Source: an uncultured Bacteroidales bacterium
GTDB taxonomy: Bacteria; Bacteroidota; Bacteroidia; Bacteroidales; Bacteroidaceae
NCBI GenBank assembly: GCA_902768605.1
Contig: CACXLY010000098.1
Location: forward strand, 1-7,908
Direction: 5' to 3'
Length of the DNA stretch: 7,908 nt
The notes beneath the pieces are model-generated. The model worked only from the letters and a program-made list of their open reading frames with translations. It had not been told where the DNA came from and did no database searches. Shown here one piece after another: positions 124-7,908 of this stretch (within the stretch, counting starts at the first letter, position 1; each line of letters begins with the position of its first letter). Position numbers and translations under genes: made by a program.

Positions 124-330
124 TAATTAAAAAATTAAGAGTTAAAAATTAAAAAATAAAAAATTATGAAGAGGAGTTAAGATTAGGAGTTAAGAAGAGA
201 AGTTTAGAAGAGAAGTTATGAGGAGCCGATACATTTGGCCCACCATAACTCCCCATCATAACTCCCCATTATAACTCCCTTTTATAACTCCCCATTATAA
301 CTCCCTTTTATAACTCCCTTTTATAACTCC
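124..330. repeat. Repeat element A: core palindrome with inverted 13-bp tandem arms
   Basis: The core is GCCGATACATTTGGC at 225-239. The left arm has five 13-bp units at 160-224, such as gaagttatgagga at 212-224 and ggagttaagaaga at 186-198. It fades outward into an A/T-rich degenerate stretch (124-159). A 5-base spacer follows the core. The right arm has six exact-length 13-bp units (245-322: ataactccccatc, ataactccccatt, ataactccctttt and so on) plus an 8-base partial unit to 330. The arms are inverted relative to each other, so the whole can fold as one long imperfect hairpin. It ends 6 bases from the CotH stop codon. Read on the minus strand, the hairpin is followed by a T-rich tract, so it could act as the CotH terminator (inference). 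Confidence 0.9.
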
Positions 331-336
331 AAGGGC

Positions 337-3300
337 TTACTTGACGAATACCCTCTTGCCTCCTACGATATAGATGCCGGGCTTCGTGATGTGGTCGAGG
401 CGGATGCCGCTGAGGGTATAGACTTCGTCCTCATCCTTCATCCCTCTTCCATCATCCTTCATCCTTCTTCCCTCTTCCCTTATCTCGGCGATGCTGGTGG
501 CGTCGCTATAGACGATGATGCGGGCAGAGCCCTCGCGGTTCGAGCCGTCGGTGGCGCGCGCTGTGACGGTGGCGGTTCCTGCCCTGAGCGCCGTGACAGT
601 GCCCTCGCTGACGGTCAGCACATCCTCGTCCGAGCTGAGCCAGTCGAGTTCCTTGACCGTTGCCGTGGCGGGCTGTATGGTGGCGAGCAGCGTGGTGTCG
701 CATCCCACTACCATCTCGACCGTTGTGGGCCAGAGTGCAATGTCGGTGATGTAGGTCTTGGCGAGCGTCACCTCGTAGTTAGTGTCGGCGGGCCGGTGGA
801 AGACGCCGTCGGCTGCCACGATGGTCTGATGCTTAATCTGATACGTGCCGCCGGCAAAGGAGTCGGACGCGGCGAGGGTGAAGGTGAAGGCCGTGCCGGT
901 GTTGGCTCCGAGATTGGCGTTGTCGGCTGCATAGACAAGGATATGATAGGTGGTTCCCTGCTGGCTGTCCATGGTCTTCTGCACGTGGGTGCTGTGGGCC
1001 GCGGTGTTAATCTTCGAGCCCCAAGCGAGCGAGCCCTCCTGTATGGAGAGGCCGCTGGAGAGGGCTATGTCGGCCTCGTAGGCTGTAGCGGCACGGCTGG
1101 CGTTGAGCCAAACGGTCACTTTGCGTGTGCCACCCGCCTTGACGGACGCGTTGCTGGAGTAGAGCTCTGCGGTGAGCTCTGCTGTGCCCTGCGGTTTGCC
1201 GTCGAGGATGCGCCGCACGGTCACGGCGTCGGCCACGTCGATGTGGCTGTCGAGGTTGGCGTCGGCATTAATCACCTCGAAGCCTTCCGGCTCGTCGCCC
1301 GAGAGATAGGCCGCTATCCAGAGCGCATCGGTCTCGTCGAGCACGCCGTTGCTGTTGACGTCGCCCGCGAGGTTGCTGATGTTGTAGTAGGTGTCGTCGT
1401 CGGACTTGAGCACTACGTGGTGGGTGTTGTCGAAGACGGGATAGGCGTCCTCGCCGAGCGTCTGATACCAGACGGGCTCCATGGTGACGCCGCCATTGAG
1501 TCTGTAGCAGAGCTTGCCGCCCTCGACGTCCTCGGTGGAGACGGGCGTCACTTGCGTGGTGGAGGTGCTGTAGCAGTTGACGGCCGAGGCGCTGCCCCGA
1601 TAGAAGTCGTTGCGGTAGTTGTAGCCGGTGACGGTGCCTATGTTGTAGCAGTTCTGTATGGAGGCTCCTGCGCCGACCCATCCGCTGATGGCAGCGCTTT
1701 CGCTGGTGCCCTTGATGTCGCCCGTATTGTAGCAGTTGGTGATGGTGAATATGGCGTTGGAGCCCTTGTTGGAACCGATGATGCCTGCGGCATTGACGCC
1801 CGTAGCGGTGACGTCCGCCTCGTTGCCCACATAGGATATGCTGACGTTACCGGCCACGGCAGAGCCGCCGATGAGTCCGACGTAATTGGTGCCTCGGATG
1901 GTGCAGGTGCTGTCGAGCACGACTTCCGAGATGCTGGCTCCTCCGCCCACGGCGCCGAAGAGCCCCGTGAATTCGCCGCCCTCGATGTGCAGGTTACTGA
2001 TGCGGTGGCCCTGTCCGTCGAAGACGCCGCGGAAGGCTTTCGTGCTGGTGCCTATCGGCAGGAACTGGTTGTCGTAGCCCGTCATGTCGAGGTCGTTCTC
2101 AAGATAGGCGTTGCTGTACTGCGCGCCGTCGCGAACGGCCTGACTGAACTCGATGAGCTCTTCGGGGGTAGAGATGTAGAACGTGGTGTCGGTATAGATG
2201 GAACCGGGCTCGTAGCCGAGGCAGTTGTCTATCCAAGCCAGTCGGGTCGGGATATAGTTGCGCAGCACATCGACCTCGGCATCGAAGGAGCCGAGGGCCG
2301 ACACGTTCTGATGGACTCTCTCATTGAGAATGGGCCATCGGATGAAGTTGAGCCGCGCGGATTCCTCCATCGACTCGGCCATGCTGTCCACGTATTCCAC
2401 GAGGGTCTTCTCGTCGAGGAACCCCTCTTTGCGGTTGTTCTTCCAGAGCTCCCGCAGTTCCTGGTCGGCAGCATTGTCGCTGAGGATGCGGCTGACGAAC
2501 GACTTCATGTTGCCTGCCGCGCTGCCGCCGCGATAGGCCCAGTCGCTGCGTCCGTTGACGGGATAGATACGCGTGTCGTTGTCGAAGGCAAGGTCGAAGT
2601 CCCATGCGGGCGAGACGTAGAATTGGGTCTCCTCGCGCTCCTTGTACATATAGGTGCTCCAATAGGTGTCCATGTTTCCCGAGAACTCTCCGATGAGGAA
2701 GTGCTTGAGGAATGATGTGACATCGAGGTACTTGCGGAAGCCGTTCTCGGGGTCGGTGTAGTTGGAGGCGAAGACGGAGGACTCCATCAGGTTGAAGTAG
2801 TTCCGGATGTAGTTGTGCTGCTGGGTCGTGATTTCGTCGTCGCCCGGATGCTTGATGGTGACGGGGTTTCCGCGGCTGCTGCTGAACCAGCTTGACTCTT
2901 GGCTGGCGTAAGCATCTACCTCGATGAGGTAGCCGCCCGTCACGTAAGGCTCCTCGTTATCGTCGGGCGTCATCTCCGTCACGGGGACGCGATGGGCATC
3001 GACGGATATTTGGTCGCAAAGCTGATAGCAACCCTTGTACTCGCCGTTCATGATGACATCGACGGGCTGAGCCCAAGGGGTATAGGGCGCTCCGAGTCGC
3101 TTGCTGACCTCGAAGGCGAGGCAGTTGCGCATGAGCGTCTTGTCGCCATAGTTGTTGATGAGCGTCCATTTCTTGGCTTTTGCAGGGCTCTCCATCGACG
3201 AGCCGCGAAGCATGTGGTGGCTCTTGCCGTCGGCAAACTTGATGCGCCACGGTTTCTTCGGGAAGCCCCACGAGGCGTTGCCGCGGCCGCGAGTCGTGAT

Positions 3301-3942
3301 GGGGTACTCCTGGATGCGAGTGCCGCCATCATAGGTTATGGTGATGTTCGACGGCATCTCCGTCACCTTGTCCCTCGGGTCGTAGCCAGCATAGGTGTGT
3401 ATGCTGACGGTCGGCAGGCCTGTTATCTGATAGAACTGGCTGTCGTCGCCTTCGCCCTCGTAGCCGTAGAACTCGATTTCGGCGATGTTACAGCGCGCAT
3501 CGGCGGGCCCCACGTAACGGACATAACGGAAGCCGCGCGAGACGGGGACGTCGGCATACGACATGCTGTTCGCCTTGCCCGGTTCGGGAATGAGATAGAG
3601 GGGGACGGCATCGAGGAAGTCGGGGCTGTTGCTGCCCTCGAAGACGGCAAGCTGGACGCGTGCGAGCTGGCTGGTGCGCGGGCTCCACCCCACGCGCGTA
3701 ATGACATGAGGCGTGCCCAAATCGAGGCCCACCCAAGTGCGCGAGCGGTCCATCGAGGCGTAGAACGTGTCGTAATTGCCATCGAAAGCATGGGCTGGCG
3801 TATTGACCGTCGAGCTCGAGTTGCCGGTACTGTAGTCGATATTGGGCGAACCGATTGGCGTGCCGATTAGCTTCGACGATTCCTGTCCGAAGCCATAAAG
3901 CGCTGCTGATAGCAGAAGGATTATTGTCAGAATACGTTTCAT
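337..3942 (-). CDS. Secreted CotH-type multidomain protein
   Basis: Large exported protein of 1201 residues. Residues 1-20 form a signal peptide (MKRILTIILLLSAALYGFGQ). Residues about 25-160 resemble an F5/8 type C (discoidin) carbohydrate-binding domain. Residues about 175-575 are a CotH-type domain: RGRGNASWGFPKKPWRIKF at 218-236, KWTLINNYGDKTLMRN at 258-273, and WDFD at 447-450 in the conserved acidic motif. Residues about 585-800 are a GLUG-like beta-helix. Two dockerin-like calcium loops start at D861 (D861/N863/N865/D869/D872) and D894 (D894/N896/D898/D902/D905). Residues about 922-1060 look cohesin-like and 1065-1145 Big2-like. The C-terminus (YTLSGIR...GIYIVGGKRVFVK) resembles type IX secretion tails. 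CotH proteins are atypical protein kinases in spore formers; the role in Bacteroidetes is unknown. The ATG at 3942 is chosen because the signal peptide starts there. Most likely a surface protein. Confidence 0.96.
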   Translation of the reverse strand: MKRILTIILLLSAALYGFGQESSKLIGTPIGSPNIDYSTGNSSSTVNTPAHAFDGNYDTFYASMDRSRTWVGLDLGTPHVITRVGWSPRTSQLARVQLAVFEGSNSPDFLDAVPLYLIPEPGKANSMSYADVPVSRGFRYVRYVGPADARCNIAEIEFYGYEGEGDDSQFYQITGLPTVSIHTYAGYDPRDKVTEMPSNITITYDGGTRIQEYPITTRGRGNASWGFPKKPWRIKFADGKSHHMLRGSSMESPAKAKKWTLINNYGDKTLMRNCLAFEVSKRLGAPYTPWAQPVDVIMNGEYKGCYQLCDQISVDAHRVPVTEMTPDDNEEPYVTGGYLIEVDAYASQESSWFSSSRGNPVTIKHPGDDEITTQQHNYIRNYFNLMESSVFASNYTDPENGFRKYLDVTSFLKHFLIGEFSGNMDTYWSTYMYKEREETQFYVSPAWDFDLAFDNDTRIYPVNGRSDWAYRGGSAAGNMKSFVSRILSDNAADQELRELWKNNRKEGFLDEKTLVEYVDSMAESMEESARLNFIRWPILNERVHQNVSALGSFDAEVDVLRNYIPTRLAWIDNCLGYEPGSIYTDTTFYISTPEELIEFSQAVRDGAQYSNAYLENDLDMTGYDNQFLPIGTSTKAFRGVFDGQGHRISNLHIEGGEFTGLFGAVGGGASISEVVLDSTCTIRGTNYVGLIGGSAVAGNVSISYVGNEADVTATGVNAAGIIGSNKGSNAIFTITNCYNTGDIKGTSESAAISGWVGAGASIQNCYNIGTVTGYNYRNDFYRGSASAVNCYSTSTTQVTPVSTEDVEGGKLCYRLNGGVTMEPVWYQTLGEDAYPVFDNTHHVVLKSDDDTYYNISNLAGDVNSNGVLDETDALWIAAYLSGDEPEGFEVINADANLDSHIDVADAVTVRRILDGKPQGTAELTAELYSSNASVKAGGTRKVTVWLNASRAATAYEADIALSSGLSIQEGSLAWGSKINTAAHSTHVQKTMDSQQGTTYHILVYAADNANLGANTGTAFTFTLAASDSFAGGTYQIKHQTIVAADGVFHRPADTNYEVTLAKTYITDIALWPTTVEMVVGCDTTLLATIQPATATVKELDWLSSDEDVLTVSEGTVTALRAGTATVTARATDGSNREGSARIIVYSDATSIAEIREEGRRMKDDGRGMKDEDEVYTLSGIRLDHITKPGIYIVGGKRVFVK
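433..474 (-). repeat. In-frame 21-bp tandem duplication in the CotH gene
   Basis: Two adjacent 21-bp units (433-453 and 454-474) match at 19 of 21 positions. On the coding strand they give the heptapeptides GRRMKDD and GRGMKDE (residues about 1158-1171). They lie between the Big2-like domain and the C-terminal tail, so they form a charged linker. The purine-rich composition resembles the intergenic repeats of this window more than the surrounding coding sequence. Confidence 0.85.
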
Positions 3943-3965
3943 AGTATATCTTATTTCAATAAATT

Positions 3966-4112
3966 GGAGTTATAAAAGGGAGTTAAAATAGGGAGTTATA
4001 ATGGGGAGTTATAATGGGCCGATACATTTGGCTCCTCATAACTCCACCTCATAACTTCTCCTCATAACTCCACCTCATAACTTCTCTTCATAACTTCTCT
4101 TCATAACTTTTC
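3966..4112. repeat. Repeat element B: core palindrome with inverted 13-bp tandem arms
   Basis: Same architecture as element A. The left arm is four 13-bp units at 3966-4017 (ggagttataaaag, ggagttaaaatag, then ggagttataatgg twice). The core is GCCGATACATTTGGC at 4018-4032, identical to that of A. After a 5-base spacer the right arm has five 13-bp units at 4038-4102 (ataactccacctc, ataacttctcctc, ataactccacctc, then ataacttctcttc twice) and a partial unit to 4112. It lies between the CotH promoter and the CotH start codon, so the whole hairpin should be in the mRNA leader. The unit type facing the gene matches the gene-facing arm of A, and the outer types match each other. Confidence 0.92.
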
Positions 4113-4118
4113 AACCCG

Positions 4119-4150
4119 CAAAGGTAATTGTATTTGCGTAAATATGCAAA
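4119..4150 (-). promoter_or_regulatory. Bacteroidetes promoter of the CotH gene
   Basis: On the minus strand TTTG (4150-4147) and TACCTTTG (4126-4119) are separated by 20 bases, matching the Bacteroidetes sigma-factor consensus of a TTTG/TTG -33 box and a TAnnTTTG -7 box. Transcription would start around 4113, right at the outer edge of element B. That leaves a leader of about 170 nt made almost entirely of the repeat hairpin before the ATG at 3942. Confidence 0.75.
4133..4150. promoter_or_regulatory. Operator-like dyad over the CotH -33 box
   Basis: TTTGC at 4133-4137 and GCAAA at 4146-4150 form a 5-bp inverted repeat with an 8-base A/T-rich centre. The right half contains the -33 box of the CotH promoter, so a dimeric regulator bound here would affect transcription. 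In AT-rich sequence such a dyad can also arise by chance. Confidence 0.3.
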
Positions 4151-4243: not shown

Positions 4244-4300
4244 CGGAAAACGAGGAAAAACTGAAAAGGTGAAAAGACGAAAAACGAGAAATCGAGAAGT
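4244..4300 (+). repeat. Degenerate GAAAA-rich tract in the leader
   Basis: The leader between the -7 box and the ATG at 4311 is a purine-rich run of irregular GAAAA(A)-based units (gaaaac, gaaaaac, gaaaag, gaaaag, gaaaaac, gaaatc). It differs in sequence from elements A to C but belongs to the same general class of short intergenic tandem repeats seen throughout this window. It contains no strong Shine-Dalgarno site at a suitable distance from the ATG. Confidence 0.5.
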
Positions 4301-4310
4301 GATTAACAGG

Positions 4311-5654
4311 ATGAGACAGCTTTTATTATTTTTGCTCCTCTGCCTCCTGCCGACGAATGTTGCCCTGTCGCAAGACATGACGAGGGAGGTGGAGGCCGAC
4401 ACGACGCGTTGGCCCGTGCCGCATCCCGATGCGAGTTGGCAGCTGGAATACTTGCCCCACAATAACGCCAACCACAACGTCTACGTCTATAAGGACAAGC
4501 TTTACGACGGACTCTTCACCCGTACGCTTGGCTGGAACGGCGGCGACGGCGTGCAGACGACCGCCCTGCCCGACGGCAACGTCTTTTGGAGCTTCAACGA
4601 CAGCTTCTACGGCAAGGCGACGGGTGCCTCGACGCGCATAAGGCAGTCGTGCAACTTCCCCCGCAACAGCATCATGGTGCAGACAGCAGGCGACGACGGC
4701 CTTCCCGGCACGAAAAGCACCAACCTGAAATGGCTGGCCGACTGGGTGCAACGCTCCAACTCCTCCGGGAGTGGCTACTACCATGCCCGCACGCACCTGC
4801 GGCATCCGAAAGGCGAAAAGACGGACGCTCAAATCAGAAAGGGCGAGATTGACCAGACATACCTCTACTGGGCGGGCGACGGAACGGTGGTCGACGGACA
4901 GCTTCAAGTCCTGTGGGCGGGCGTCTATAACGGTACGGAGAATCTGATGCAGAGCGACAACCGCGCGCTTGCCATCTATTCCCTCGAAGGGACACCCGGC
5001 AGCAGCTCTTACCTCAAACTGCTGAGCGTGGACCATAACTTCTTCGAACAAGACCCCATCGGCTACGGACAGACACTTTGGGAGGACGAGGACGGACACA
5101 CTTACCTCTACGCCTGCAACCAGTTCAAGAAGAACCCCGACGACCAGCTCAACACCTCCTCGCCCGTAGTGGCACGCTCGCAGACGCACGACCTCCGCTC
5201 CCCGTGGCAGTATTACGTCAAGGACGCCAGCGGCACGTTCCGATGGCAAGACACGTACCCCACGGCCGAGGAAGTGAATCGCTCGGCCATCAGCTCGCGT
5301 AGCGTCTCGACGGCTTGGGTCTTCAAGGATGGCGACTGGTACTATATGACGGCACAAGGCTACGTCTTCTCCAAGCAGATGTACATCATGCGGAGCCGCT
5401 ATCCGTGGGGACCTTTCGAGGAGTGCCACCAGTTGTGGACGATGCCCTGGGTGCTCGACAAGCTCGGCACACGCACATACGGCAAGTTCTACATGCCACA
5501 CCTCCACCAGTCCCTTTCGCGCGAGGGGGAACTCGTCTTCTCCACCAATACGGATTGCGAGAACTGGGCGGACAACTTCAACAGCAAAGGCTCGGCCGAC
5601 TTCTACCGTCCCTTCTTCTTCCGCATCTATAACTGGAAAGCAATCTTTGAATAG
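4311..5654 (+). CDS. Secreted beta-propeller-like protein (DUF5005/DUF4185-like)
   Basis: Exported protein of 447 residues with the signal peptide MRQLLLFLLLCLLPTNVALS. The motif LPDGNVFWSFNDSFYG (86-101) resembles the first blade of the DUF4185/DUF5005 proteins, which look like the five-bladed propellers of glycoside hydrolase clans. Other blade-like signs are YLYWAGDG at 184-191, EDGHTYLYACNQF at 260-272, GDWYYMTAQGYVF at 341-353, and SRYPWGPFE at 362-370, typical of GH43-like folds. The C-terminus YRPFFFRIYNW (432-442) closes the domain; no sorting tail follows, so it is probably periplasmic or surface-bound by other means. I chose the ATG at 4311 over the in-frame GTG at 4269, which would add 14 basic residues encoded by the GAAAA tract ahead of a perfect signal peptide. 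The DUF5005 name is from memory. Catalytic activity is unproven; a sugar-related role is inference. Confidence 0.93.
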   Translation: MRQLLLFLLLCLLPTNVALSQDMTREVEADTTRWPVPHPDASWQLEYLPHNNANHNVYVYKDKLYDGLFTRTLGWNGGDGVQTTALPDGNVFWSFNDSFYGKATGASTRIRQSCNFPRNSIMVQTAGDDGLPGTKSTNLKWLADWVQRSNSSGSGYYHARTHLRHPKGEKTDAQIRKGEIDQTYLYWAGDGTVVDGQLQVLWAGVYNGTENLMQSDNRALAIYSLEGTPGSSSYLKLLSVDHNFFEQDPIGYGQTLWEDEDGHTYLYACNQFKKNPDDQLNTSSPVVARSQTHDLRSPWQYYVKDASGTFRWQDTYPTAEEVNRSAISSRSVSTAWVFKDGDWYYMTAQGYVFSKQMYIMRSRYPWGPFEECHQLWTMPWVLDKLGTRTYGKFYMPHLHQSLSREGELVFSTNTDCENWADNFNSKGSADFYRPFFFRIYNWKAIFE

Positions 5655-5684: not shown

Positions 5685-5701
5685 CGTTTAGTTAGAATCT
5701 G

Positions 5702-5859
5702 AAGTTTCTGAAGTAGTTAAGTAGACAGTAGTTAAGTAGTTAAGCCAACACCTTTTCCCGCCTATAATAAGCAGCCAAAACATTCGGCTCAACTACTAGC
5801 GAAGCGAAAACTACTGAACTACTTAACTACAACAAATACAATCAGAACTTCCGAAACTT
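5702..5859. repeat. Repeat element C: nested inverted repeats around a variant core
   Basis: The outer pair is aagtttctgaagt (5702-5714) and acttccgaaactt (5847-5859), 12 of 13 complementary. The inner arms are gtagttaag-type units at 5713-5744 and their inverted counterparts at 5809-5830. The innermost pair, AGTAGTTAAGCC (5735-5746) with GGCTCAACTACT (5786-5797), differs at one position. The core GCCAAAACATTCGGC (5774-5788) matches that of A and B at 12 of 15 positions in the same orientation. Unlike A and B, about 30 bases (5744-5773) sit between the left arm's GCC and the core's GCC, as if the core had been expanded. It fills the gap between the propeller gene and the next gene. Confidence 0.8.
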
Positions 5860-5888
5860 AAATTATAATGATAACAGAATCACAGAAA

Positions 5889-6719
5889 ATGAAGCAACTG
5901 ATAAATACGGAATCCGTCATCACTCCCCCTAAAAGGGGTTGGGGGGTCTTGTTTCTTTGCCTCCTTTTTGCCTCCTGCTACAAGCTCATCTCGACCTTCG
6001 CGCCGAGCGAAGTGGCGCCCGGGCAGACGTTTGAGGTCAGCTTTACCGTCGTGGACGATGGCTCCGACACTCAGAACTTCGTGACGGACTGGAGCTATGC
6101 GGGCGTCAGAGTGCCGAGAGGCTGGACCGTGACCGTACCGGCTGGCGCTCACCAGCAGTTTGCCGAGGACTGGGTTTACTATCGCGACGGCTCCCGGGTG
6201 AACAGCGCTCACGACATGGAACCCTGCGAGAAGCTCTCGCAATTCTATAACGCCGCCTGCCCCAAGACGGGGTACCAATGGGCGGGTTTCAAGAGCGTGA
6301 CGAAGATACCGAAAAACATCTCGGCCTGCTGGCGGAACGGCTGCGACAGCATTCGCGTCACGTTCCTCGTCACCGTGCCTGAAGACGCCAAGCCCGGCCG
6401 CTACCACATCGACTTCATGGGAGGCGACGAGGAGGACGACGCAGGTATCGACAAGTACAGCAGCTACAGCGCGGCCAAGGACTCACGGCTCTTCCACGTC
6501 GGCACGGCATCTGGCTCGTATGTCGACAACCGCAACGCAAGCCTCTCGCGCACGGTCATCGTCACGGATGCCACGGGCATCAAGGACGTTATAGCCGACA
6601 AGGACCTCAAGGACCTTCATGACCCACAATCTCCCGCTTACAATCTTTCCGGCCAACGCGTCACGTCGGCGCAGAGCGGCATCATCATCCAAAACGGCAA
6701 AAAAACGCTTAAGCCATGA
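5889..6719 (+). CDS. Uncharacterised secreted protein or lipoprotein, with C-terminal sorting-like tail
   Basis: About 276 residues from the ATG at 5889 (283 from the alternative ATG at 5868, whose numbering is used here). The N-terminus has a hydrophobic run, VLFLCLLFASC at 27-37, with Cys37 as a possible lipidation site (F at -3, A at -2, S at -1). The start MKQL matches the style of the neighbours (MRQLL, MKQLL), so 5889 is preferred. Residues 41-100 (EVAPGQTFEVSFTV at 48-61) and RVTFLVTVPEDAKPGRYHIDF at 163-183, in two halves, suggest an Ig-like beta-sandwich. Cysteines at 120, 131, 154 and 159 could form disulfides. The C-terminus (YNLSGQRV at 258-265, ending NGKKTLKP) is a sorting-like tail similar to that of the CotH protein. 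Its TGA overlaps the next ATG by 4 bp. I do not recognise the central domain. Function is unknown; coupling suggests it works with the SGNH hydrolase. Confidence 0.88.
   Translation: MKQLINTESVITPPKRGWGVLFLCLLFASCYKLISTFAPSEVAPGQTFEVSFTVVDDGSDTQNFVTDWSYAGVRVPRGWTVTVPAGAHQQFAEDWVYYRDGSRVNSAHDMEPCEKLSQFYNAACPKTGYQWAGFKSVTKIPKNISACWRNGCDSIRVTFLVTVPEDAKPGRYHIDFMGGDEEDDAGIDKYSSYSAAKDSRLFHVGTASGSYVDNRNASLSRTVIVTDATGIKDVIADKDLKDLHDPQSPAYNLSGQRVTSAQSGIIIQNGKKTLKP
5922..5950 (+). repeat. G-rich hairpin repeat, copy 2, inside a coding region
   Basis: CCCCC at 5925-5929, then GGGG at 5935-5938 and GGGGGG at 5941-5946, lie inside the signal-peptide region of the gene starting at 5889 and encode TPPKRGWGV. 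The sequence is an inverted copy of the G-rich hairpin after the propeller gene. It is in frame and sits between MKQL and the hydrophobic core of the signal. Confidence 0.7.
6600..6617 (+). repeat. 9-bp in-frame tandem duplication before the C-terminal tail
   Basis: AAGGACCTC (6600-6608) is followed directly by AAGGACCTT (6609-6617), giving KDLKDL at residues 245-250. It lies in the linker just before the YNLSGQRV tail, the same place where the CotH gene has its 21-bp duplication. Confidence 0.7.
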
Positions 6720-7600
6720 AACAACTACTCATCCTGTTCCTCTGCCTTCCAGTCTATTCGCAGAGCATGGTGGTAAACACCGTAGAGGGCAACGCCACAG
6801 CCTACCCCACCAGCCAGGTGGAGTCCATCACCTTCACCTACGACGAGACGGAACCCGTACGGCCGTCCGCAAAAATACGAATGAAGCGGAACATCGTCTT
6901 CCTGGGACACAGCATCTGGCGCAACGACAACCACTTCGTGAAGTATCAGAACTCGGGCTCGTTCGTGACGCCTTTCACGGGCACATTCAAGGCGCGGGGC
7001 TACCAGACGCTTCTCGGAGAGGTGTTCGACTTCCCCTCTGCGACGTCGCTCGGCCACAGCGGCGGCTACAGCGGCTACTCGTTAGGTGGACTGAGCGATA
7101 CGGACGAGAAGAGCATCGCCGTCGTAGCCCAGCAAGCCGACAACGGCTGGCCGAGCGTGCAGAACGCCATCTGGACCATCGACTTCATCTCAAACGACTT
7201 CAAGCGTAACGTGCCGCTCGGCTCTTTCTCCGACTATAAGAACGCGACCGGCCCGGCTACCTTCTACGGAGCCGTGCGCCAGCTCTACGACAAGATAAAG
7301 GAGCTGTCGGGCAACGACGTCATTATCGTCTTCGCCAACGCCACAAAGCGCAACAACGCGGACTACACAAGCACGAGCCGGAACACCGCCGGCTGCACGC
7401 TTGCCGACTACGAACTGGCCATGCTCACTTGCGCGGCAGCGAACTCGAACTGGTATTTCGTGGACCAGCACCGGCTGTCGGGCATCACGGACGAAAACCT
7501 GACCGCCGTCACCGCCGACGGTCTGCACCTCAACAACCTCGGGTACTCGATGGCTGTGCTACCGTGGATAGATGTCCTCCGCACCTTAGCAGACAAATAA
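6716..7600 (+). CDS. Secreted SGNH-fold hydrolase (putative esterase)
   Basis: Exported protein of 294 residues; signal peptide MKQLLILFLCLPVYSQ. Residues 17-43 (VVNTVEGNATAYPTSQVESI, then TFTYDE) are a short strand-rich segment often seen before domains of secreted Prevotella proteins. The SGNH blocks follow: GHSIW at 64-68 with Ser66 as likely nucleophile, a Gly-rich block II GHSGGYSGYSLGG at 113-125, FISNDFKRN at 157-165 with Asn160 as block III, and DGLHLNNLGY at 268-277 with Asp268 and His271 completing the triad. Block I reads GHS where GDSL enzymes have GDS. The layout fits a Bacteroidetes SGNH subfamily that I think is called DUF5040 (from memory). Deacetylation of a glycan is the natural guess; the substrate is unknown. 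The ATG overlaps the preceding stop (ATGA), so translation is probably coupled. No sorting tail or lipobox is present. Confidence 0.94.
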   Translation: MKQLLILFLCLPVYSQSMVVNTVEGNATAYPTSQVESITFTYDETEPVRPSAKIRMKRNIVFLGHSIWRNDNHFVKYQNSGSFVTPFTGTFKARGYQTLLGEVFDFPSATSLGHSGGYSGYSLGGLSDTDEKSIAVVAQQADNGWPSVQNAIWTIDFISNDFKRNVPLGSFSDYKNATGPATFYGAVRQLYDKIKELSGNDVIIVFANATKRNNADYTSTSRNTAGCTLADYELAMLTCAAANSNWYFVDQHRLSGITDENLTAVTADGLHLNNLGYSMAVLPWIDVLRTLADK

Positions 7601-7820: not shown

Positions 7821-7908
7821 AGTCTCGAAGAGACGAAAGACCACAGACGGGGGTGACAACCCCCGGTAATGTTGCGACGACAGAGAAAGTCCTGAAAGGA
7901 CGACAGAG
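7821..7908. repeat. Cluster of REP-like small hairpins, cut by the window end
   Basis: There are three compact stem-loops: GTCTC-GAA-GAGAC at 7822-7834, CGGGGG-TGACAA-CCCCCG at 7848-7865, and GTCCT-GAA-AGGAC at 7889-7901. The first and third share the frame GTCnn-GAA-nnGAC followed by GA(A/C)AGA, and the base changes between them preserve pairing. GACGACAGAG occurs twice, at 7876-7885 and 7899-7908. This resembles the REP-like palindromes that in other genomes are associated with REP-type (Y1) transposases. No transposase lies in the window; the array may continue to the right. Confidence 0.65.

What the first reader, a model, noticed from the sequence alone, without database searches (positions are those of the whole stretch)
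124..4112. Unrecognised repeat family: 15-bp palindromic core between 13-bp-period inverted tandem arms
Elements A and B have the same core (225-239 and 4018-4032). Their arms are built from units that are exactly 13 bp long (11 complete units in A, 9 in B), although unit sequence drifts from copy to copy. The units on the two sides of each core are inverted relative to each other. Ordinary slippage makes direct tandem arrays, not two arrays kept in mirror orientation around a fixed core. This suggests a mechanism that reads the core, such as hairpin-primed copying, or a protein or RNA recognising the folded form. I do not recognise it as a described element.
Basis: partly seen in the sequence, partly recalled or inferred. 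Interest (0 to 1): 0.8.

Follow-up and report, generated by a model that had tools for sequence, protein, structure and literature searches.

The report
Foldback mini-transposons with repeated arms
The mirrored repeats are copies of a small mobile DNA hairpin, probably moved by an insertion-sequence enzyme, that in rumen gut bacteria is often found just in front of genes and may have been kept there for use.

Summary
In detail: A (core 225-239, 4+7 units of 13 bp) and B (core 4018-4032, 4+6 units) are mirrored tandem arrays around one core. A third member, C (5699-5861, core 5774-5788), was missed. They belong to a dispersed family of foldback-shaped miniature inverted-repeat elements (MITEs) in a rumen Bacteroidaceae/Prevotellaceae genus. 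Intact members end in CTGAAGTTTCNGRAGT and are flanked by AT-rich direct repeats, typically 8 bp (21 of 31 have an exact one of 7 bp or more; 0.74 expected). An insertion sequence with matching ends encodes an IS4-family transposase. The arm unit GRAGTTAW has the spelling of the inner half of that end. A and B are of a 13-bp-arm form that mostly lacks the outer end box and shows no clear duplications. That form lies close upstream of gene starts (17 of 21 within 45 nt; 24% of intergenic bases do) and is about as conserved as its flanks in 3 of 3 ortholog pairs, so some copies may be recruited leader hairpins. Hairpin-primed copying is not needed. New variant of a known kind; nearest recorded: BrickBuilt/MITE464 of Porphyromonas and eukaryotic foldback elements.

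The parts
160..224 (+). Element A, left arm: 4 complete 13-bp units (173-224) and a degenerate fifth (160-172)
225..239 (+). Element A, core GCCGATACATTTGGC
240..330 (-). Element A, right arm: 7 inverted 13-bp units, ending 6 bp before the CotH stop codon
3954..3959 (+). TTTCAA left of B; possible target duplication with 4109-4114 (suggestive only)
   Evidence: read; several relatives have a single TTTCAA here
3966..4017 (+). Element B, left arm: 4 units of 13 bp
4018..4032 (+). Element B, core GCCGATACATTTGGC
4033..4110 (-). Element B, right arm: 6 inverted units of 13 bp
4119..4126 (-). -7-like promoter box TACCTTTG of the CotH gene, which puts B in the CotH 5' leader (motif TAnnTTTG recalled, not searched for)
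   Evidence: read
5699..5861 (+). Element C, whole: terminal repeat CTGAAGTTTCTGAAGT to ...CCGAAACTTAA; flanked by GTTAGAAT / ATTATAAT (6 of 8 alike, not an exact duplication)
   Evidence: one relative (L207) has this gap without C (by eye)
5744..5788 (+). Element C, long core, containing GCCAAAACATTCGGC at 5774-5788

Best explanation
A, B and C are members of one MITE family with a foldback shape. Shown: (1) copies with the same core and/or arms lie at many unlinked sites in related genomes and are missing from the orthologous sites that were read in most relatives; (2) intact members carry the terminal inverted repeat CTGAAGTTTCNGRAGTT / TTAAGTTTCGGGAGTT and AT-rich flanking direct repeats, typically 8 bp; (3) an insertion sequence with matching ends carries an open IS4-family (DDE) transposase gene, and copies with the same ends and only transposase fragments exist; (4) the arm unit GRAGTTAW has the spelling of the inner half of that end. 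Inferred: an IS4-family transposase moved the elements in trans; the arms arose when the inner, transposase-contacting half of the end was multiplied by slippage; they are mirrored because the ends are inverted. A and B are of a 13-bp-arm form that mostly lacks the outer end box (GTTTC) and so is probably no longer mobile. Copies of that form lie mostly a few tens of bp upstream of gene starts, in 5' leaders or between co-directional genes, and some probably now act as leader or intercistronic RNA hairpins (the least certain step).
For: Family and common plan. Ends: CTGAAGTTTCNGRAGT has 103 matches in 30 of 139 genus genomes against 9 reversed (a few single hits look coding). Flanking repeats: 21 of 31 with >=7 bp exact, mean 0.74 and maximum 4 in 500 re-pairings. 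Link of the 13-bp arms to the ends: L351 and L352; link of the core to the ends: window C, L244, L247. Insertion sequence L651: matching ends and NF049925 'IS4 family transposase' 400.9 bits, cut-off 250; left end alike in 16 of 18 (15 of 18 for the T variant), right-end consensus of the MITEs TTAAGTTTCGGGAGTTA. Deleted derivatives with the same ends: L515, L655, remnants in G127. Position: 17 of 21 within 45 nt upstream of a start against 24.2% of intergenic bases (p 7e-8). Ortholog identity: element 93.3, 95.8, 90.3%.
Against: A, B and most 13-bp-arm copies lack the outer end box (2 of 23 have GTTTC on one side) and have no clear duplication: >=6 bp in 4 of 23 against 1.5 expected; >=5 bp in 11 against 4.6, shuffle maximum 11. 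Window C has no exact duplication. The insertion-sequence copies L655, L660 and L661 show no obvious exact duplication by eye, and the left end of L651 is at a contig edge. The transposase was not found in the MITE-rich assemblies G003, G001, G015; G033 has an IS4-type gene with different ends. Only three ortholog pairs were compared. Transposase binding to the arm units was not tested.
Confidence: 0.75

Rival explanations
1. One reading: a self-building repeat, in which the folded core primes copying of one arm from the other (hairpin-primed or template-switch synthesis), so that arms grow in mirror orientation in place at each locus.
For: Arms of one element match each other in unit type and the whole folds as a hairpin. 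Unit number can change by one 13-bp unit between orthologs (third pair), and A and B have more units than most. Mirrored arms with other units occur elsewhere in the clade.
Against: Unit spellings recur at unlinked sites; ends, flanking repeats and a matching insertion sequence explain dispersal; copies without a core exist (L332, L338, L339, L352). The spacer bases of the two arms are not complementary in the elements laid out (by eye), which copying of one arm from the other would not give.
Confidence: 0.07
2. A cis-acting RNA family (leader or intercistronic hairpin) that spreads by recombination between spacers and not by transposition; likeness of the arms to the insertion-sequence end is secondary.
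For: Position just upstream of starts, 17 of 21; conservation in three ortholog pairs; loss of ends and no clear duplications in the 13-bp-arm form.
Against: Copies with the same arms or the same core have both ends and flanking repeats (L351, L352, L244, L247). Core orientation relative to the downstream gene is mixed. Downstream genes are unrelated.
Confidence: 0.1
3. A MITE family moved by another enzyme, such as a Y1 (RAYT/IS200-type) transposase that reads the core hairpin.
For: The core is a hairpin, and the MITE-rich assemblies examined lack the matching IS4-type gene.
Against: 8-bp flanking repeats suit a DDE transposase (that Y1 enzymes make none is recalled); ends agree with those of the L651 insertion sequence; transposase-fragment derivatives have the same ends. 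Y1 transposases were not searched for.
Confidence: 0.08

Closest known systems
BrickBuilt and MITE464/PgRS of Porphyromonas gingivalis (PMC4596501; abstract, found passages and section 7 part 1 read)
   Same: Bacteroidales MITEs, intergenic, about 10-20 copies per genome, with short tandem repeats inside and ends matching an insertion sequence.
   Different: As described there: one internal direct array (23 nt or 41 nt) between a leader and a tail, IS5-type ends, direct repeats of varying length. Here: mirrored arrays on both sides of a core, other ends matching an IS4-family insertion sequence, flanking repeats of about 8 bp.
Foldback elements of eukaryotes (Drosophila FB and Galileo, Mutator/Foldback Tm1; search listing only; details recalled)
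   Same: Long inverted ends made of short tandem repeats around a small middle (recalled).
   Different: Bacterial, under 400 bp in the copies measured here, likely IS4-type transposase; no shared sequence was tested.
Insertion sequence L651 (G005), NCBIfam NF049925 IS4 family
   Same: The ends, and probably the transposase that moves the MITEs.
   Different: About 1.6 kb with a transposase gene and one GGGAGTT motif at each end; the MITEs lack the gene and repeat the motif.
ERIC, REP and Correia/NEMIS elements (recalled; for REP only a search listing, PMC3733652)
   Same: Small palindromic intergenic elements, some in transcribed spacers.
   Different: No tandem-repeat arms as far as recalled; other sequences; not compared by computation.

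Membership tests
MITE | Short, no transposase gene | tested here: met
   31 end-bearing entries of 74-370 bp; A, B and C contain no ORF of 80 aa of their own
MITE | Terminal inverted repeats | tested here: met
   C and the end-bearing set. Not met for A and B themselves, which lack the outer box (for B; by eye for A)
MITE | Target-site duplication | tested here: met
   21 of 31 end-bearing elements. Inconclusive for the 13-bp-arm form including B and not exact for C
MITE | Several dispersed copies, absent at orthologous sites | tested here: met
   mnmG and leuS loci; no 13-bp array in 45 related loci, 23 of them with the CotH gene next to DUF5005
MITE | Autonomous partner with the same ends | tested here: met
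   L651; further copies L660, L661 with stops flagged in the frame, L659 with the right end found. Not in the same genomes as most MITEs
IS4 family (partner) | IS4-type DDE transposase | tested here: met
   NF049925 400.9 bits, cut-off 250; Pfam DDE_5
Foldback element | Inverted ends built of tandem repeats | tested here: met
Rfam-listed RNA element | Match above the family's cut-off | tested here: not met
   best on B is sR36, 21.9 bits, cut-off 55
Leader or intercistronic regulatory RNA | Changes expression of the downstream gene | not testable with these tools
   Only position and conservation were tested

The most novel reading that the evidence does not exclude
A bacterial foldback-transposon class whose ends are multiplied arrays of the transposase contact motif, and whose end-trimmed descendants have been taken over as 5'-leader or intercistronic hairpins of housekeeping genes (mnmG, leuS, folA and others): a parts supply for post-transcriptional control in Bacteroidales.
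Probability: 0.3. Interest if true: 0.75.

Novelty: new variant of a known kind. Interest (0 to 1): 0.55.

Why it matters
It turns an odd pattern into a defined mobile family with ends, flanking repeats and a candidate transposase, so its spread can be tested. Multiplication of a transposon end into mirrored arms is known from eukaryotic foldback elements (recalled); in the six paper searches made here no bacterial element with mirrored arms was seen in the listings. The copies upstream of housekeeping genes, about 16 in one genome (17 stretches fetched; two are probably one element), are natural cases of a hairpin added to a leader, with leaders of sister species that lack it as controls.

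Tried and rejected
blastn of A and B against 45 related loci gave nothing; C gave hits in L199 and L224. Pfam and NCBIfam of the L515 fragment: nothing.

Rejected: A and B as ends of a composite transposon carrying CotH, because CotH lies next to DUF5005 in 23 of 45 relative loci and no three-unit 13-bp array occurs in any of the 45. The core as such: of 23 matches in 42 genomes, 8 have no mirrored arms and were set aside (5 are one orthologous site upstream of a tRNA-like gene, 1 looks like another promoter, 2 look coding; by eye). Chance. Wide spread: in 393 genomes of the order the arm pattern is at chance outside G003 (10 hits in 9 genomes against 7 reversed).

Full report
What is there. 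The window is from a rumen-type Bacteroidaceae/Prevotellaceae genome: the best relatives of its DUF5005 protein are 83-90% identical and come from MAGs of sheep, buffalo, yak, deer and the like. The window's own genome is not held. Genes: CotH/F5-F8/dockerin/Big_2 protein 337-3942 (-), DUF5005 protein 4269-5654 (+), a small protein 5868-6719 (+), a weakly GDSL-like protein 6716-7600 (+). A lies just past the CotH stop codon, B between the CotH start codon and a -7-like box (motif recalled), C between DUF5005 and the next gene.

Cores at 225-239 and 4018-4032; 13-bp units; A 4+7 and a degenerate fifth on the left, B 4+6. RNA folding z-scores are -7.2 (B) and -6.5 (A), 0 of 200 shuffles as good in each.

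Is it chance? The core alone is not diagnostic: 195 IMG/VR loci with core variants have no mirrored arms. In 42 related genomes the core occurs 23 times against 2 for the reversed pattern; 15 of the 23 have mirrored arms; of the other 8, five are one orthologous site upstream of a tRNA-like gene, one looks like another promoter and two look coding. In 139 genomes of the genus GCCRATACATTYGGC has 16 hits against 0 reversed and CCAAAACATTYGGC 29 against 2. The arm pattern with up to one mismatch has 96 sites in 10 chosen genomes against 0 reversed; without mismatch it occurs in 7 of 139 genomes, 51 sites against 0.

Anatomy. Laying out the elements shows a common plan: four 13-bp units, core, four inverted units. 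By a unit pattern 12 of 21 elements count as 4+4, seven others are within one unit (some by neighbouring sequence), and window A and B have 4+7 and 4+6. The unit is GRAGTTAW plus a 5-bp spacer; 123 of 132 spacings are exactly 13; over 173 units position 8 is T in 84% and position 10 A in 91% (positions 3-6 are fixed by the pattern used). The core is short (15 bp) or long (about 45 bp, in effect two core hairpins in a row; G144 has the short core twice). L332, L338, L339 and L352 have lost the core and inner units. Spellings such as TTAACT in the third unit from the core recur at unlinked sites (by eye). These look like copies of an ancestor and not arrays built in place.

Ends and flanking repeats. 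Some copies carry an outer inverted repeat, CTGAAGTTTCNGRAGT ... ACTYCNGAAACTTAA. The first pattern has 103 matches in 30 of 139 genus genomes against 9 reversed; a few single hits look coding. Of 31 elements with both ends, 21 have an exact direct repeat of 7 bp or more at the junctions, typically 8 bp and AT-rich; 500 re-pairings of flanks give a mean of 0.74 and a maximum of 4. The 13-bp-arm form is tied to these ends by L351 and L352, and the core by C, L244 and L247. In G015 and G033 the same ends enclose arms of about 12-bp period with another core, and some other interiors.

Partner. L515 is an element of about 580 bp with the same ends and a transposase fragment. A search with that fragment found L651 in G005: left end ATTGAAGTTTCGGGAGTTA at the contig edge, an open transposase frame, right end AACTCCCGAAACTTAA. 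The protein is called IS4 family (NF049925, 400.9 bits, cut-off 250). With the whole protein 11 of 139 genus genomes match: L660 (G146) and L661 (G109) have matching ends, L659 (G081) a matching right end, and in these three the tool flags stop codons in the frame; G005 has a deleted copy with matching ends (L655) and G127 eleven matches, mostly short C-terminal remnants, several beside the same end. L655, L660 and L661 show no obvious exact flanking duplication; two G127 remnants do by eye (L683, L685). G003, G001 and G015 gave no match; G033 has an IS4-type gene with different ends. So the MITE ends match those of an IS4-family insertion sequence (left end 16 of 18, or 15 of 18 for the T variant), and the arm unit has the spelling of the inner half of that end. 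That the units are transposase contact sites is inference.

The 13-bp-arm form. Most copies in G003 and G001, like A and B, lack the outer box (2 of 23 have GTTTC on one side) and have no clear duplications: >=6 bp in 4 of 23 against 1.5 expected; >=5 bp in 11 against 4.6, shuffle maximum 11. B has TTTCAA on both sides where several relatives have one copy, which is suggestive only. This form lies close to gene starts: 17 of 21 within 45 nt upstream, while 24.2% of intergenic bases in related loci do (binomial p 7e-8), and 0 of 21 between convergent genes against 19.4% of bases (p 0.011). The set of 21 includes L351 and L352, which keep their ends, and L354, with another core. The end-bearing set is less biased: of 30, 19 could be typed, 12 within 45 nt (p 3.5e-4), 4 convergent. 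Downstream genes are unrelated; leuS, mnmG, gmd, folA and udk were named from recalled sequence, not from a search. In three ortholog pairs of G003 and G001 the element is 93.3, 95.8 and 90.3% identical, gaps apart; the 600 nt upstream 89.9, 89.0 and 82.6%, about 560 nt downstream 91.2, 91.8 and 86.3%. The third pair has 15 gap positions, consistent with one extra 13-bp unit, so slippage does occur.

Orthologous sites. Of 30 fetched mnmG loci (122 of 139 genomes have the gene) the element is in G003 and G001 only; G007 has a different element with the same kind of arm motif in the same leader; L393 could not be read and two (L368, L372) have unlike upstream sequence. Of 30 leuS loci it is in G003 only; L423 could not be read and two have little upstream sequence. 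For the window: CotH is next to DUF5005 in 23 of 45 relative loci and no three-unit 13-bp array occurs anywhere in the 45, so B is an addition. L207 has the gap of C without C (by eye); C itself has no exact duplication.

Range. End pattern: 27 of 399 genomes of the family, 82 hits against 19 reversed; many single hits look coding, but G208, G188 and, cut by a contig end, G225 have armed elements. Arm pattern in 393 genomes of the order: 10 hits in 9 genomes outside G003 against 7 reversed, that is, chance.

Mechanism. Shown: dispersed copies, ends, flanking repeats, an insertion sequence with matching ends, positional bias. Inferred: movement in trans by the IS4-family transposase, growth of arms by slippage of a repeated contact motif, loss of the outer box, retention upstream of genes. 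Not shown: any movement or any effect on expression.

Known or not. BrickBuilt and MITE464 of P. gingivalis are the nearest bacterial elements found (PMC4596501: abstract, found passages and section 7 part 1 read); they are described there with internal direct arrays and IS5-type ends. The foldback form is known from eukaryotes (search listing; details recalled). Six searches of open papers listed no bacterial element with mirrored tandem arms; subscription papers and ISfinder were not searched.

Noticed in passing
window 423-484: A 7-bp tandem array (CTTCATC) inside the 3' end of the CotH ORF, read as RMKDDGRGMKDEDE just before the C-terminal segment.
   Followed up: no
L211 1573-1660 and 15619-15707; L210 16080-16180 and 19237-19326; L228 10546-10622 and 15136-15215; L199 7517-7603: Mirrored tandem arms with other units of 7-8 bp (such as AAAAGTG, CATTGAC, GGGGCAA) around other centres; the two in L228 share the spellings AGAATAC and CAATC.
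   Followed up: partly
most of L196-L240: Tandem arrays of period about 22, often with palindromic units such as CCGCGTGCGGCGTTGGCAATCC, in most related loci.
   Followed up: no
window 7821-7866 and 7888-7908 (-): Matches to Rfam Acido-Lenti-1 below its cut-off (30.6 and 21.1 bits, cut-off 37).
   Followed up: no
L389 (G007, mnmG leader): A different element with TTAACTCC/ATAACTTCC arms and another centre in the same leader in which G003 and G001 carry the 13-bp form.
   Followed up: partly
L471, L473, L474, L477 (G015): Elements with the same left end but an unrelated GC-rich interior (CTGAAGTTTCTGAAGTAATGAAACC...); L473 and L474 also have the right end and flanking repeats.
   Followed up: no
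L241, L248, L251, L258, L262: The core spelling GCCAAAACATTTGGC also occurs, without arms, at a conserved promoter-like site upstream of a tRNA-like gene in five genomes (by eye).
   Followed up: no
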